Assembly: GCA_022750195.1 (NCBI GenBank)
Contig: JAKIWE010000003.1
Span: 124,001 to 188,000 of the forward strand
Reading direction: 5' to 3'
Origin: Thermoplasmata archaeon
Lineage (GTDB): Archaea > Thermoplasmatota > Thermoplasmata > Lutacidiplasmatales > UBA184
Length of the DNA stretch: 64,000 bases
The position numbers and the translations under genes are program-made. Positions within the stretch are counted from its first letter, which is position 1. Each line of letters starts with the position of its first letter. Shown piece by piece: positions 8,502 to 13,755 of this stretch. A model generated the notes under the pieces. That model did no database searches. It had not been told where the DNA came from and saw nothing but the letters and a program-made list of their open reading frames with translations.

Positions 8502-8521
8502 GATTCGTCCCGGCAAAAGCG

Positions 8522-9945
8522 TTGGGATTTTTCTCAGTTCGGCGATCGAGCACCTTTCAACGTTCACTCTCGAAAGTTGGCTTTTGGGGTGGCTCTGTGC
8601 ATTCCTGTCCGTGCCGACCGTCTGTCGAGCGCTCCCTGTCCCCCTCGCTTCCCCCCTCCCCAGCAAACTCCTCGCTCTTCTCGGCGACTACCAGCTTCTC
8701 GTGAACGAGATCCTTCGGCAAGCCCTCCTCACACGGAAAACCTCCCGCGGCTCGATGTCCCGCTTCGCCCGTGACCGTGCTTTCGTTCGCCAACTCACCG
8801 GTCAGCACGCCGTCGTGGCGGCCGAGATCGGGCTCGCTCTCGCCAAGGCGCACCGCCGACGGCTGCGCCAGGGAAAGCTCTCTTCCGTCCCGTACGTGCG
8901 ACGGCCGTTCCTCCGTACCAACACGTCGACCTTCCACCTCGATCACGACTCGGGCAAGGTCCGCCTCTCCCTGCGCTCCGGGGAGTGGTGCCACTTCTTC
9001 ATTCACCTAGCCCCCTACCACCGAGAGCGCCTCACCGCCCCGGAAGTTCGCCTCAAACAACTGCACGTCAGCGAACGTGGGGTGGTCCTCTATCTCGAAC
9101 GCGCTGCCCCGGCGCCGTATCGTCCCACGAGCGTCTTGGCGCTCGACACGAACGAGTCGTCGCTCGACGGCGTCCAGGTTGATCCGGTGGAGGGCACCCA
9201 GCCAATCCAAGTCCCCTTTCCCGAGATCCGAGCGATCCAATCCACCCACGTCGACCGACGCCGTCACTTGGCTCAGAAGAAGGCCACCGACCGACGCGTC
9301 GGACGTCGATTGCTCGACCGAGAAGGTCGGCGAGAGCGACATCGGGTCATAACCCGACTCCACGTCCTCACCCGGCAGCTCGTCACAGTGGCCGCCCTCC
9401 ATCACGCCGCCCTCGCCTTGGAGGACCTCTCTCGGCTCGATTCCCGACGCGCGCGCAAGGGGCCGCGGGGGCAACGGCGCCCGGGTCGCGGGTATGCCGG
9501 ATCTCCCACCCGGAAATTGAATCGACGGCTGTCGAGCTGGCCCCGCGGCGAATTGCATCGGCAGCTGTCCTACAAGGCGGCCGACCTGGGAGTACCGATC
9601 TATTGGGTCAACCCGTTCCGAACGTCCACGACCTGCCCGAGATGTGGGGTGTATGCCGGTCCCCGAAGCAGGGTAGGCCCGAGGTTCGTCTGCGTACAGC
9701 CGGGATGCGGCTGGTCCCTCGACCGGCAGCTGAACGCGGGGGCGAATCTAGGTAGAATCGTTCTGCGCGACCACGGTCGTACGGAACTTGGAGGTCTTCG
9801 ACTTGACCTCGACGCCCTCTCCAAGGAGGCGATGAAGCCCCGATACCCGTTCGAGGAAGTCGGACGAGCAAGGGCGGAGCGGACGGAGGGGGAGGGATTC
9901 AGCGGAAGCCCCGGGGGATACCCGAGGCTCCTAATAAAATCCCAA
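8522..9945 (+). mobile_element. Solitary tnpB element (IS200/IS605-like) bounded by a 10-base inverted repeat
   Basis: The element is defined by the tnpB gene and by a perfect 10-base inverted repeat, TTGGGATTTT at 8522-8531 and AAAATCCCAA at 9936-9945. There is no tnpA transposase beside it. IS605 elements do not normally end in inverted repeats, so the pair may mark the boundaries of a degenerate element or be chance. The insertion lies between the str promoter and the convergent GNAT gene. Boundaries are approximate. Confidence 0.5.
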
Positions 9946-9957
9946 AGCCCCCGGTAA
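8611..9957 (+). CDS. tnpB: TnpB-like RuvC-domain protein (IS200/IS605 OrfB family)
   Basis: From GTG 8611 this is a 448-residue TnpB-type protein. The first RuvC motif is LALDTNES (D179), the second LALEDLSRL (E271). A zinc ribbon with C342/C345 and C361/C366 follows. The third RuvC motif reads [11 protein letters not shown], so the position normally occupied by the third catalytic Asp (second D of DRDxNAA) is Gln 373. The protein may therefore be nuclease-impaired or use a rearranged site. The frame is open back to a TTG at 8491, but that stretch overlaps the str promoter and shows no TnpB features. About 65 residues follow the third motif, overlapping a predicted hairpin. Confidence 0.82.
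9907..9929 (+). ncRNA. Candidate omegaRNA/right-end hairpin at the 3' end of tnpB
   Basis: A 9-base stem with one mismatch (9907-9915 against 9921-9929) closes a 5-base loop inside the last codons of tnpB. In characterised TnpB systems the guide RNA scaffold is made from the 3' end of the gene and the element's right end, so the placement fits an omegaRNA. Only the secondary structure is seen here; expression and guide boundary are inferred. Confidence 0.35.
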
Positions 9958-9962
9958 AAAAA
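9956..9962 (-). terminator. T7 tract, likely terminator of the GNAT gene
   Basis: The plus strand has seven A residues, which read as seven T on the minus strand about 70 bases beyond the stop of the acetyltransferase gene. Archaeal intrinsic termination relies on such T runs. It overlaps the tnpB stop on the other strand. Confidence 0.45.
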
Positions 9963-10030
9963 GCCGCGACTTCCCTGGACAGGAATTCGGGGGGCGGGCA
10001 ACGAGATGCTCCGACCCCCTGCCCACGGTG

Positions 10031-10561: not shown

Positions 10562-10715
10562 GGCACGAGAACGTGGCGGAGGTATTATGGCCACTTCCCG
10601 AAACGTTCGTCTGGCCGAACCCGCGGAACGGAACCGTGAAATCTCGGATCCGGCTCGGAGGGGGGTGAACGCTCGCCCCGTCGAGGGCTCGTCCACCAAC
10701 GAATCCCTTGTGGCG

Positions 10716-11282
10716 ATGCCGGATACGTTGGAGACCTTGGCGGGCGAGATCGAAAGCTGCCGACGATGCCATCTCGGCGGCGTTCGGAATCGGGTCGTCG
10801 TCTATCGCGGGTCCCGCGATCCTGAGGTGGTGTTCCTAGGGGAAGCACCCGGGGCCGAGGAGGATCGCGTCGGGGTCCCGTTCGTTGGCCGCGCCGGAAA
10901 GGACCTCGACTACGCCCTGGCTGCCGCCCGGATCGACCTTGGGCGGGCCGGGTTCCTGAACCTGATCAAGTGCCGCCCCCCCGACAATCGATACGACCCG
11001 GCGGCGGCGCGGGCTTGCCGCCCGTTCCTCGAGCGCCAAATCGCGATCCTTCGACCAAAGACTATCGTCCCTCTCGGAGCGCACGCACTCCACGCGATCG
11101 CCCCCGACGCGGCGACGATCACCAAGGCCGCTGGACGGCCTATGGCTAACGTTACCCCAACGGTTTTCCCTCTCCTCCACCCGGCGGCCCCTCTGCACAA
11201 TCCGCGTCTTCGGGCGCGTTTCGACGCTGACGTGCACGCTCTGGGGCGCTTCCTGCGTTCCCACTCCGGACAAACGGTATAG
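10716..11282 (+). CDS. udg: Family 4 uracil-DNA glycosylase (4Fe-4S)
   Basis: A 188-residue enzyme that removes uracil from deaminated DNA. Four cysteines at residues 15, 18, 86 and 101 are spaced as the 4Fe-4S ligands of thermophile-type UDGs. The catalytic motif reads GEAPGAEED, which is family 4 rather than family 5, and the C-terminal motif LLHPAAPLHNP is present. The open frame extends far upstream, but family alignment supports MPDTLETLAG; an in-frame GTG two codons earlier is an alternative start. It lies 22 bases before the polymerase gene. Confidence 0.92.
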   Translation: MPDTLETLAGEIESCRRCHLGGVRNRVVVYRGSRDPEVVFLGEAPGAEEDRVGVPFVGRAGKDLDYALAAARIDLGRAGFLNLIKCRPPDNRYDPAAARACRPFLERQIAILRPKTIVPLGAHALHAIAPDAATITKAAGRPMANVTPTVFPLLHPAAPLHNPRLRARFDADVHALGRFLRSHSGQTV

Positions 11283-11304
11283 CGTCCGGACCGGTCCCGC
11301 CCAC

Positions 11305-13755
11305 GTGCCCATCTTCGACCTATTCCTCATCGGCGGTACCTACCGCGCTGTCGAGGGGGGCGTCGTCCTCGAACTGTTCGGCCGGTCGAAGGACGGCGAG
11401 AGCCTCGTCGCGCGCTACTATGGTTTCCCGCCCTACTTCGTCCTCGTAGAACCGGACGCCGCCGCGCTCGAGAAGCTGAGAGCGGACGCGCAGGTCAAGG
11501 AGATCCGCGAGATCGAAACCTGGTACGCCGGGAAGACCCGGCCCGCGGTCCGCGTCACCCTGACGAATCCCTGGACGGTCCCGGAGTACCGGGAGCGGTA
11601 TCGAAAGAGCGGCGACGAGCCGAACGTGCTCGCCTGCGACATCCCGTTCATCCACCGGTTCCTCTACGACAAGGGTCTGGGGCTCACCGTCCGGTTCGAA
11701 GGGGAGGACGAGCCGCCCGAGGTTGCCAAGCTCTACCCTACGGCGGTGAAGGTCCTTCGCGTCGTGCACGAGGACGGTAAGGAGATCGCGCCCGCCGAGC
11801 CGTTCCGTCCGGCCCTGACCGTCCTCTCCTTCGACATCGAGAACGCGATCCGGGAGCGGACGATCTTCACGATCTGCGGCGTCGTGCACAAGGGCGGCGA
11901 GCGAGTGAGCTCGTTCCGGATCGCCAACATGCCCGAGAAGGAGATGTTGGAGAAGTTCGCCCGGATCGTCGAAGAGACCGACCCCGACGTGATCACCGGC
12001 TACAACATCGGGGGCTACGACATCCCTCTGCTCCTGGAGCGCGCCGAGGTCGCCGGCCTCCCCAACCTCCCCCTCGGTCGCGACCGGGGTCCGGCGCGGG
12101 ACGCCGGGGAACGGTTGTGGCGCGTGAGCGGCCGGGTCATCGCCGACGCCTGGTGGTCGGCACGCCGGGACCTTCACCCCAAGCAGGAGAGCCTCGACTT
12201 CGTCGCGCGAACGCTCCTCGGCGAGAAGAAGCTCGACGTCGACCGCCGCAACATCGAGGCAGAGTGGGCCCGCGACCCGGAGCTGGTTCAGGAGTACTGC
12301 GAGAAGGACGCCGACCTGGCCCTCCGGATCCTTGAGCGGCTCCGTTCGATCGAGAAGGCCGCCGACCTCGCGACCGTGGCGCACCTCCCGCTCGAGGAGG
12401 GGCTCAACGGCCGGACCTCCCTGTTCATCGATGCGCTGCTCATCCCGCGGGCCGACCGGGCGAACATCGGCGTCCCCCCAAGCCGGAACAATCGCCGAGA
12501 GGCGGCGATCGAGGGCGGTTATGTCCACGAGATCCGGCCGGGCATCTACCGGTGGGTCGTGGTCCTCGATTTCAAATCGATGTACCCGTCGATCATCATC
12601 GCGAAGAACCTCTGCTTCACCACCCTGTCGCCCGAGGGGACCACGATCTCTCCCTCGGGGGCGCGGTTCGTCACCAAGGATGTTCGGGAAGGTCTGATCC
12701 CGCAGATCCTCGCCGACCTCCTCGCCCAGCGCGACCGGTTCCGCGAGCTGGGCCGGTCCGCCCCGACGCCCGAGCAGCAGACCTACTACGACGGGTTGCA
12801 GTACGCCGTCAAGATCCTGATGAACTCGTTCTACGGGGTCCTCGCTTCGAGCTTCTACCGGTTCACCGACAAGACGATCGGGGCCGCCATCACCTCCTTC
12901 GCGCGCGACGCGATCACGACCATCATCCGGTCCCTCCAGAAGGACGGGCACGAGGTCGTCTACTCCGACACGGACAGCGTCTTCGTCCGATCCCCGGTCA
13001 CGACGGCCGAAGGGGCCCGCGAGTTCGGCGAATCCCTCGCTAAGCGGTTCACGACCGGTGGCGCTACCTTTGAGTTCCAGTCCGTCTACGAATCGTTCTT
13101 CTCCCACGGGGCGAAAAAGCGGTACGTCGGCAGGACGATCTTCCCGAAAGAGGAGCTCGTCATCCGCGGCTACGAGAACCGCCGCACGGACGCTTTCGAC
13201 TACCAGTCGGCCTCGCTCCTGGAGGTGTTCGACCTCGTGCTCAAGGGCGACACGGACGCGGCCGTACGCCGGGCGCGGGAGCTGGTGGAGCGGTGCGCCG
13301 AGGGCAAGGTCCCGGTCGAGGAGCTGGTCATCGCCCGGAGCGTCCGGGCCGAAGAGCAGTACAACGAGGCCACGCGGGACGCGCTCCCGTTCCTGCGCGT
13401 CTTCAAGCAGCTCAAGCAGGAGGGGTACGATGTGATCCCCGGGATGAAGGTCGCTTGGATCGTCACGGACGCGAAGAAACGACCTCAGGAGATCGTTCCG
13501 TGGATGGCGGGGCGAGCGTTCACGGGGCGTCCCGACTTCTCTTACTACGCCGACCGCGTCGCCCAGACCCTGGCCCGCGTGACCGAGGTGTTCGACTGGG
13601 ACGCGGAAGCGCTGCTTCGGGGCAGCCATCAGAAGCGGCTCGGGGGAGGGCCCACGACCACGCGCTCGCTGGACGACGAGGCGGAAGCCGTCACGCTCGA
13701 CACGCCGGTCACCGAGGTCGCTAAGCCCCCCTCGCGTCGCCAGACGACGCTGTAA
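11305..13755 (+). CDS. polB: Family B DNA polymerase
   Basis: An 816-residue replicative or repair polymerase. The 3'-5' exonuclease motifs are VLSFDIENAIRE (Exo I) and YCEKDADLALRI (Exo III). The polymerase motifs are DFKSMYPSIII (A), the helix with LMNSFYGVLAS (B) and VVYSDTDSVFV (C), all intact and in order, with no intein interrupting them. The GTG start lies 22 bases after the glycosylase stop. A TATA-like GGTATAGC sits about 25 bases upstream, inside the end of the glycosylase gene. The Thr/Ser-rich tail may carry a PCNA-binding motif (SRRQTTL). Confidence 0.95.
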   Translation: MPIFDLFLIGGTYRAVEGGVVLELFGRSKDGESLVARYYGFPPYFVLVEPDAAALEKLRADAQVKEIREIETWYAGKTRPAVRVTLTNPWTVPEYRERYRKSGDEPNVLACDIPFIHRFLYDKGLGLTVRFEGEDEPPEVAKLYPTAVKVLRVVHEDGKEIAPAEPFRPALTVLSFDIENAIRERTIFTICGVVHKGGERVSSFRIANMPEKEMLEKFARIVEETDPDVITGYNIGGYDIPLLLERAEVAGLPNLPLGRDRGPARDAGERLWRVSGRVIADAWWSARRDLHPKQESLDFVARTLLGEKKLDVDRRNIEAEWARDPELVQEYCEKDADLALRILERLRSIEKAADLATVAHLPLEEGLNGRTSLFIDALLIPRADRANIGVPPSRNNRREAAIEGGYVHEIRPGIYRWVVVLDFKSMYPSIIIAKNLCFTTLSPEGTTISPSGARFVTKDVREGLIPQILADLLAQRDRFRELGRSAPTPEQQTYYDGLQYAVKILMNSFYGVLASSFYRFTDKTIGAAITSFARDAITTIIRSLQKDGHEVVYSDTDSVFVRSPVTTAEGAREFGESLAKRFTTGGATFEFQSVYESFFSHGAKKRYVGRTIFPKEELVIRGYENRRTDAFDYQSASLLEVFDLVLKGDTDAAVRRARELVERCAEGKVPVEELVIARSVRAEEQYNEATRDALPFLRVFKQLKQEGYDVIPGMKVAWIVTDAKKRPQEIVPWMAGRAFTGRPDFSYYADRVAQTLARVTEVFDWDAEALLRGSHQKRLGGGPTTTRSLDDEAEAVTLDTPVTEVAKPPSRRQTTL

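What the first reader, a model, noticed from the sequence alone, without database searches (positions are those of the whole stretch)
8611..9957. TnpB-type protein with Gln at the third RuvC acidic position
The third RuvC motif reads [11 protein letters not shown]. In TnpB and Cas12 enzymes the catalytic Asp is the residue two before the Asn (DxN), which here is Gln 373 (bases 9727-9729). The other acidic residues, D179 and E271, are intact, as is the zinc ribbon. The protein might have lost cleavage and been kept as an RNA-guided binder, as described for TldR regulators, or the preceding Asp may serve in a rearranged site. The DRQxNA form may be common among archaeal TnpBs, so loss of activity is not certain. 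The gene stands alone, with no transposase.
Basis: partly seen in the sequence, partly recalled or inferred. Interest (0 to 1): 0.62.

Follow-up and report, generated by a model that had tools for sequence, protein, structure and literature searches.

The report
TnpB carried by a TIR/TSD element
This archaeal gene encodes an RNA-guided nuclease-like protein (TnpB) whose third active-site acid sits two residues from the usual place in its whole family, and it rides in a mobile element of a kind not recorded for prokaryotic TnpB, one that lands just outside the host's promoters.

Summary
In detail: Q373 (9727-9729) aligns with catalytic D361 of ISDra2 TnpB, while D179, E271 and the zinc ribbon are intact. 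It is not a private loss. The protein belongs to one archaeal clade (57 sequences with the site readable, plus a Sulfolobus IS607 TnpB) that has Q or H there and, in every copy that is not decayed, keeps Asp two residues earlier (D371 here). Elsewhere that earlier position varies (D/H/N/P). With purifying selection (dN/dS 0.11-0.27), a covarying 3' RNA, mobility and changing guides, a relocated catalytic Asp is likelier than a dead, TldR-like binder; activity is untested. The larger result is the vehicle. The gene fills a 1,432-bp element (8518-9949) with terminal inverted repeats and a 9-bp target-site duplication. The same architecture occurs at 13 other loci, and one end matches that of an IS5-like SWIM-DDE transposase and its MITE. 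IS200/IS605 and IS607, the usual carriers, make neither TIRs nor TSDs. Across about 20 insertions a TATA-like box lies at a fixed distance beyond the left duplication; here it is the conserved rps12 promoter, whose site is empty in 29 relatives. New variant of a known kind.

The parts
8518..9949 (+). whole mobile element (1,432 bp), tnpB its only gene
   Evidence: Unbiased TIR+TSD scan, best solution (TIR 12/14, TSD 8/9); same ends in related loci; controls
8518..8531 (+). left terminal inverted repeat AGCGTTGGGATTTT
9933..9949 (+). right terminal inverted repeat AATAAAATCCCAAAGCC
   Evidence: the 16-mer core is identical in copies from several other genomes
8509..8517 (.). left 9-bp target-site duplication CCCGGCAAA
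   Evidence: 8/9 identical to the right copy; 14 loci have 8-9/9 against mostly 5 or fewer in cross-locus controls
9950..9958 (.). right 9-bp target-site duplication CCCGGTAAA
8611..9957 (+). tnpB, 448 aa; stop codon falls in the right TSD
   Evidence: NCBIfam guided_TnpB 8.8e-20 (below its curated cut-off), Pfam PF07282 5e-14; AlphaFold2 mean pLDDT 86, Foldseek hits Cas12f and TnpB
9145..9147 (+). D179, RuvC-I acid
   Evidence: invariant in the 50-sequence alignment
9421..9423 (+). E271, RuvC-II acid
   Evidence: at least 90% in the 50-sequence alignment; present in all clade members
9634..9708 (+). CCCC zinc ribbon (C342, C345, C361, C366)
9721..9723 (+). D371, proposed relocated third catalytic acid (equivalent of ISDra2 D359)
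   Evidence: Asp in 58 of 59 sequences lacking D at the canonical position; the exception is a decayed copy
9727..9729 (+). Q373 at the canonical third acid position (equivalent of ISDra2 D361)
9835..9949 (+). predicted omega-RNA-like 3' region overlapping the end of tnpB and the right end
   Evidence: consensus fold with 19 pairs, 5 with compensatory changes; last hairpin re-forms with different sequences
9950..9969 (+). presumed guide: flank 3' of the element, starting with the TSD
   Evidence: inferred from TnpB biology; differs at every insertion; unique in the genome
8495..8502 (-). TATA box of the rps12-rps7-EF-2 operon (TATTTAAG on the + strand), beyond the left TSD
   Evidence: conserved in 29 relatives whose site has no element; operon identified

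Best explanation
A TnpB-only mobile element of Thermoplasmata. Shown: it has IS5/IS903-like terminal inverted repeats and a 9-bp target-site duplication instead of the ends of IS200/IS605 or IS607; the insertion lies just outside the BRE/TATA core promoter of the rps12 operon; its protein has the TnpB/Cas12f fold; and its 3' end has a conserved, covarying RNA structure. Inferred: the element is moved in trans by an IS5-like DDE transposase that recognises the same ends. The TnpB, loaded with an RNA made of its own 3' end plus the flank, recognises the empty site left after excision, or the element-free allele, and cuts it. That promotes repair from an element-bearing copy and so keeps the element. 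The catalytic triad is D179-E271-D371: the third metal ligand has moved from the canonical position (now Q or H) to the Asp two residues before it.
For: Ends and TSD: best solution of an unbiased scan in the window and at related loci. Fourteen loci score 2-5 against 5-14 for 182 mismatched controls, and have 8-9/9 TSD matches. Carrier: the right-end 15-mer AATAAAATCCCAAAG follows directly after an IS5-like SWIM-DDE transposase gene in a genome with several copies of the TnpB element; a 105-bp MITE with the same TIR and a 9-bp TSD is 78% identical over 73 bp to that transposon's 3' end. Relocated acid: among sequences lacking D at the canonical position, 58/59 have D at -4; among those with D there, 14/32 do. 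One clade, supports 99/88 including a Sulfolobus IS607 TnpB; a Methanocaldococcus IS607 TnpB also reads DRQ. Function kept: dN/dS 0.11-0.27, covarying RNA, confident model. Promoter site: 100% A/T at -10 and A in 17/20 at -9, left side only; rps12 TATA conserved and site empty in 29 relatives.
Against: No activity measurement is known to me for any DRQ or DRH TnpB found here. D at -4 could be inherited from a DRD ancestor and kept for a structural reason (N-cap of the last helix). The transposase link rests on one right end, since the contig starts inside that gene, plus one MITE; G000, G242, G226 and G306 hold no recognisable DDE_Tnp_1 gene, although G242 has several copies. The partner of the f5 and f25 elements (TIR GGTTCTGT) is unknown. 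Rows of the Fisher table are related sequences, so its p-value overstates the evidence.
Confidence: 0.6

Rival explanations
1. Nuclease-dead TnpB clade: the canonical third acid is lost and the protein only binds RNA-guided targets (TldR- or Cas12m-like), perhaps silencing empty-site promoters, and is kept as such.
For: The canonical D361 equivalent is Q or H throughout. Cas12m2 shows that an altered RuvC triad can give strong binding without dsDNA cleavage (PMC10442227). The element abuts a promoter, so pure binding next to the element-free site could repress it.
Against: RuvC-I D, RuvC-II E, the zinc ribbon and D at -4 all stay conserved, which a dead site does not need; the elements remain mobile with changing guides, whereas TldRs are described as domesticated with strong associations to non-transposon genes (PMC13418256). 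No second target for the guide in the genome.
Confidence: 0.25
2. Single-strand nickase or weak/altered-metal nuclease: Q or H at the canonical position plus D371 gives partial activity, for instance nicking or activity mainly with Mn2+.
For: Q and H alternate at the site, so a side chain able to bind metal or phosphate may be favoured. The archaeal SisTnpB1 works best with Mn2+ at 37 C (PMC10640517), though it has the normal triad.
Against: No direct evidence; nothing in the sequence separates nicking from full cleavage.
Confidence: 0.15
3. Decayed remnant: a relic copy in this genome without function.
For: Single copy in this genome; TSD copies differ at 1 of 9; the reading frame runs past the usual stop in the right repeat into the TSD.
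Against: Full-length frame, dN/dS 0.25 against L024, all clade-conserved residues present, 3' hairpin re-formed with its own sequence.
Confidence: 0.1
4. Ordinary IS200/IS605-type solo tnpB whose TnpA is elsewhere.
For: Solo tnpB genes are common in archaea (e.g. S. islandicus, PMC10640517).
Against: The ends are inverted repeats with 9-bp TSDs at 14 loci. IS607 makes neither TIRs nor TSDs (PMC6188088); that IS200/IS605 makes no TSD is general knowledge.
Confidence: 0.03

Closest known systems
TnpB of IS200/IS605 and IS607 (ISDra2 TnpB, SisTnpB1)
   Same: Fold, RuvC-I D, RuvC-II E, CCCC zinc ribbon, 3' RNA overlapping the gene end, guide position (presumed)
   Different: Third acid not at the canonical position; carrier element has TIRs and a 9-bp TSD and no HUH or serine transposase
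ISSis5 (IS607) TnpB of Sulfolobus islandicus pYN01 and its Methanocaldococcus pFS01 relative
   Same: DRQ motif with D at -4 and a DSN RuvC-I motif; ISSis5 TnpB is sister to the clade
   Different: Carried with an IS607 serine-recombinase TnpA, not by a TIR element
Fanzor1 in eukaryotic IS4-like, Mariner, MuDr and Helitron elements (PMC3627910)
   Same: A TnpB-family protein captured by DNA transposons other than IS200/IS605 and IS607
   Different: Eukaryotic; here it is an archaeal TnpB in a non-autonomous IS5-like element
TldR nuclease-dead repressors
   Same: Departure from the canonical RuvC triad
   Different: D, E and an alternative D kept; still mobile; guide changes with each insertion
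Cas12m2 (PMC10442227)
   Same: Non-canonical RuvC triad in a Cas12/TnpB fold
   Different: Cas12m2 has HDD (first two positions altered); here the third is altered with an Asp two residues away
IS903-like members of the IS5 family
   Same: GGCTTTG-type ends and 9-bp TSD (IS903 end and TSD recalled, not looked up)
   Different: This element carries tnpB and no transposase

Membership tests
TnpB | RuvC-I Asp and RuvC-II Glu | tested here: met
   D179 and E271, present in all clade members
TnpB | RuvC-III Asp at DxN | tested here: not met
   Q373; D at -4 instead. It is a TnpB homologue by fold and sequence, but not a canonical DED TnpB
TnpB | CCCC zinc ribbon / Cas12f-TnpB fold | tested here: met
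   PF07282 5e-14; Foldseek E 8e-15 to AsCas12f and 8e-12 to ISDra2 TnpB
TnpB | guide RNA encoded at the 3' end of the gene | tested here: inconclusive
   Conserved covarying structure, 5 compensatory pairs; transcript not shown
TnpB | RNA-guided DNA cleavage with a TAM | not testable with these tools
   No assay; no fixed TAM proven. Left-flank positions -4 to -1 favour Y-T-T-C but overlap the expected BRE
IS200/IS605 element | HUH TnpA, hairpin ends, no TSD | tested here: not met
   No TnpA in the element; TIRs and 9-bp TSD
IS607 element | serine recombinase TnpA, no TIR, no TSD | tested here: not met
   No TnpA; TIRs and TSD present; PMC6188088
IS5/IS903-like transposon, non-autonomous derivative | TIRs shared with a DDE transposase element and a 9-bp TSD | tested here: met
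   L157 right end and L149 MITE; left end of that transposon not available
IS5/IS903-like transposon, non-autonomous derivative | actual mobilisation by that transposase | not testable with these tools
   needs an experiment
TldR | inactivated RuvC domain | tested here: inconclusive
   Canonical third acid lost, but D, E and D at -4 conserved
TldR | domesticated, stable association with a non-transposon gene and target | tested here: not met
   Multicopy mobile element, changing guides, no second target

The most novel reading that the evidence does not exclude
An archaeal lineage of RNA-guided nucleases has both moved its third catalytic acid within the RuvC site and been captured by IS5-like transposons that insert, in a fixed orientation, immediately upstream of the BRE/TATA of host promoters (probably by docking on TFB/TBP). 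The guide RNA then always reads the sequence next to a promoter, so that alleles lacking the element, such as the rps12 operon here, are cut or silenced: RNA-guided retention at promoters.
Probability: 0.3. Interest if true: 0.85.

Novelty: new variant of a known kind. Interest (0 to 1): 0.66.

Why it matters
Prokaryotic TnpB has been described as cargo of IS200/IS605 and IS607 (PMC3627910), while its eukaryotic relatives, Fanzors, ride in many DDE transposons. This is a prokaryotic case of that capture and would allow tests of what TnpB does for an element that duplicates its target. The DRQ/DRH clade gives a natural test of whether the RuvC triad tolerates moving its third acid by two residues. 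It also warns that dead TnpBs should not be called from the canonical column alone. The strict promoter-proximal, one-orientation insertion suggests a targeting mechanism worth testing in archaea.

Tried and rejected
1) Private loss in this copy: rejected, the whole clade has Q or H. 2) TldR-like regulator with a fixed second target: no second guide match in the genome. 3) Alternative transposases near the other clades: L183 in G181 carries DDE_Tnp_1 but showed no matching ends. 4) Complete ends for the transposase loci L160-L173: no convincing TIR/TSD pair, so only the right end of L157 and right-end-like matches next to L161 and L167 stand. 5) Fold of the single sequence: poor (pLDDT 37); the 50-row alignment gave 86. 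6) Viral and plasmid relatives: none close to the window protein; distant Sulfolobales proteins proved to carry DRQ. 7) A catalytic-site survey that I recall (Altae-Tran et al. 2023, PNAS, reporting rearranged TnpB sites) is not in the library, so whether this rearrangement is already listed there was not checked.

Full report
Observation. The ORF at 8611-9957 (+) encodes 448 aa. D179 is in LALDTNES, E271 in LALEDLS, and the zinc ribbon has C342, C345, C361 and C366. RuvC-III reads [11 protein letters not shown], with D371 at 9721-9723 and Q373 (CAG) at 9727-9729. ISDra2 TnpB aligned to a sister protein numbers so that its Asp two before Asn is D361 and the one four before is D359; D191/E278/D361 are its catalytic residues (PMC10097598). 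The protein matches PF07282 (5e-14) and, below its curated cut-off, NCBIfam guided_TnpB. A 50-sequence AlphaFold2 model (mean pLDDT 86) finds AsCas12f (E 8e-15) and ISDra2 TnpB (8e-12) by Foldseek.

Q or H is the family state. Homologues came from relatives and the class and TNB-domain proteins from the phylum. In a 95-sequence set filtered at 97% identity the pair at positions -4 and -2 before the Asn is D,Q in 38, D,H in 18, and D,S, D,Y and N,Q in one each. Where -2 is Asp, -4 is H 15, D 14, P 2, N 1. So 58/59 sequences lacking the canonical Asp have D at -4, against 14/32 of those that have it (Fisher p about 1.6e-9; rows are related, so this is descriptive). The one exception with a readable site in that set, L008, has a broken zinc ribbon; L067, which reads NRQ, has an internal stop. 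In the tree all DRQ/DRH proteins form one clade (99/94), with a Sulfolobus islandicus IS607 (ISSis5) TnpB as sister (99/88); a DRY protein arose separately. SSV11 and ATSV copies and a Methanocaldococcus IS607 TnpB also read DRQ. Close pairs have dN/dS 0.11-0.27.

The element. Comparison of copies in other genomes gave sharp ends: left TGCTTTGGGATTTTATT, right AATAAAATCCCAAAGCC, inverted repeats of one another, with 9-bp direct repeats outside. A scan not told the ends found them as the best solution in L024-L027 and in the window, where the element is 8518-9949 with TSD CCCGGCAAA/CCCGGTAAA. Further loci in families f1, f25 and f5 gave 9-bp TSDs with diverged ends (GGCTTTGA..., GGTTCTGT...). 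Over 14 loci the TIR+TSD mismatch score is 2-5; in 182 mismatched left/right pairs it is 5-14, with a single 5. TSD identity is 8-9/9 against mostly 5 or fewer across loci. IS607 makes no TIR or TSD (PMC6188088), and PMC3627910 describes prokaryotic TnpB in IS200/IS605 and IS607.

Who moves it. The right-end pattern in relatives also occurs directly after the stop of an IS5-like transposase with SWIM and DDE_Tnp_1 domains (L157, genome G238). A 105-bp MITE in G242 (L149) has the same TIR, a 9-bp TSD with one mismatch, and 78% identity over 73 bp to that transposon's 3' end. Mobilisation in trans by such a transposase is the simplest reading. It is inferred: the transposon's left end is off the contig, the host genome has no DDE_Tnp_1 gene, and the partner of the f5 and f25 elements is unknown.

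The 3' RNA. The last 115 nt of 15 elements fold into a shared structure of 19 pairs, five with compensatory changes, including a G-C to C-G switch in 5 of 15 sequences. The last hairpin re-forms with different sequences in each lineage. Transcription was not tested.

Where it inserts. In 20 left flanks, A/T is 100% at -10, 95% at -9 and 85-90% at -11 and -8 relative to the TSD, with A in 17/20 at -9; right flanks show nothing similar. In 18 of 20 the longest mechanical ORF reading away from the element starts 16-77 nt from the TSD. In the window this gene is rps12 of the rps12-rps7-EF-2 operon. The TATTTAA (or TATATAA) box is conserved in 29 relatives, which show no element there; two of them (L206, L220) share ATTCGTCCCG across the junction. 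The element thus sits upstream of BRE/TATA and leaves the core promoter intact. All 20 tnpB elements have the same orientation towards the box. Docking on TFB/TBP, or selection by TnpB for a TAM on that side, are both possible; I could not separate them.

Mechanism. Most likely a relocated D-E-D site (D179, E271, D371) and RNA-guided cutting of element-free sites. The dead-binder reading remains possible, since I found no assay of a DRQ or DRH protein. Cas12m2 shows that altered triads can bind without cutting (PMC10442227), and Fanzors show that a displaced RuvC-II Glu can occur (PMC10711439). The rearranged-site survey that I recall (Altae-Tran et al. 2023) could not be opened, so priority for the relocated third acid is unchecked.

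Noticed in passing
L141:1527-2498 (G210): Another element with TIRs (GGCTGTGGGATT) and a perfect 9-bp TSD (CCGCAAATA), carrying a putative membrane-anchored protein instead of tnpB; its left neighbour is another right end 9 bp away. The same right end - about 9 nt - left end junction recurs in L131 and L161.
   Followed up: partly
L100 (G205:C1), also G205:C11 and C20: Three TnpB copies have an in-frame TAG; in L100 it lies exactly at the x of the catalytic DxNA motif (DRD*NAACN). Possibly read as pyrrolysine, if this organism uses it.
   Followed up: no
L157:2-1381 (G238:C55): IS5-like transposase with an N-terminal SWIM zinc finger; homologues in several relatives (L160-L168).
   Followed up: partly
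L098/L034 (G238): The left TSD of one copy equals the right flank of another, suggesting recombination between copies or a misassembly.
   Followed up: no
L002, L003, L004 (own genome): A sister TnpB-like family with HRDxAA (Asn of the motif replaced by Ala); three copies in this genome.
   Followed up: no
L184, L185, L186 (own genome): Three further TnpBs with the canonical DRDxN motif.
   Followed up: no
L125 (G211): A separate TnpB with DRYINA: another case of a lost canonical Asp with D at -4.
   Followed up: no
window 10710-13755: Uracil-DNA glycosylase gene next to a family B DNA polymerase gene, to the right of the element.
   Followed up: no
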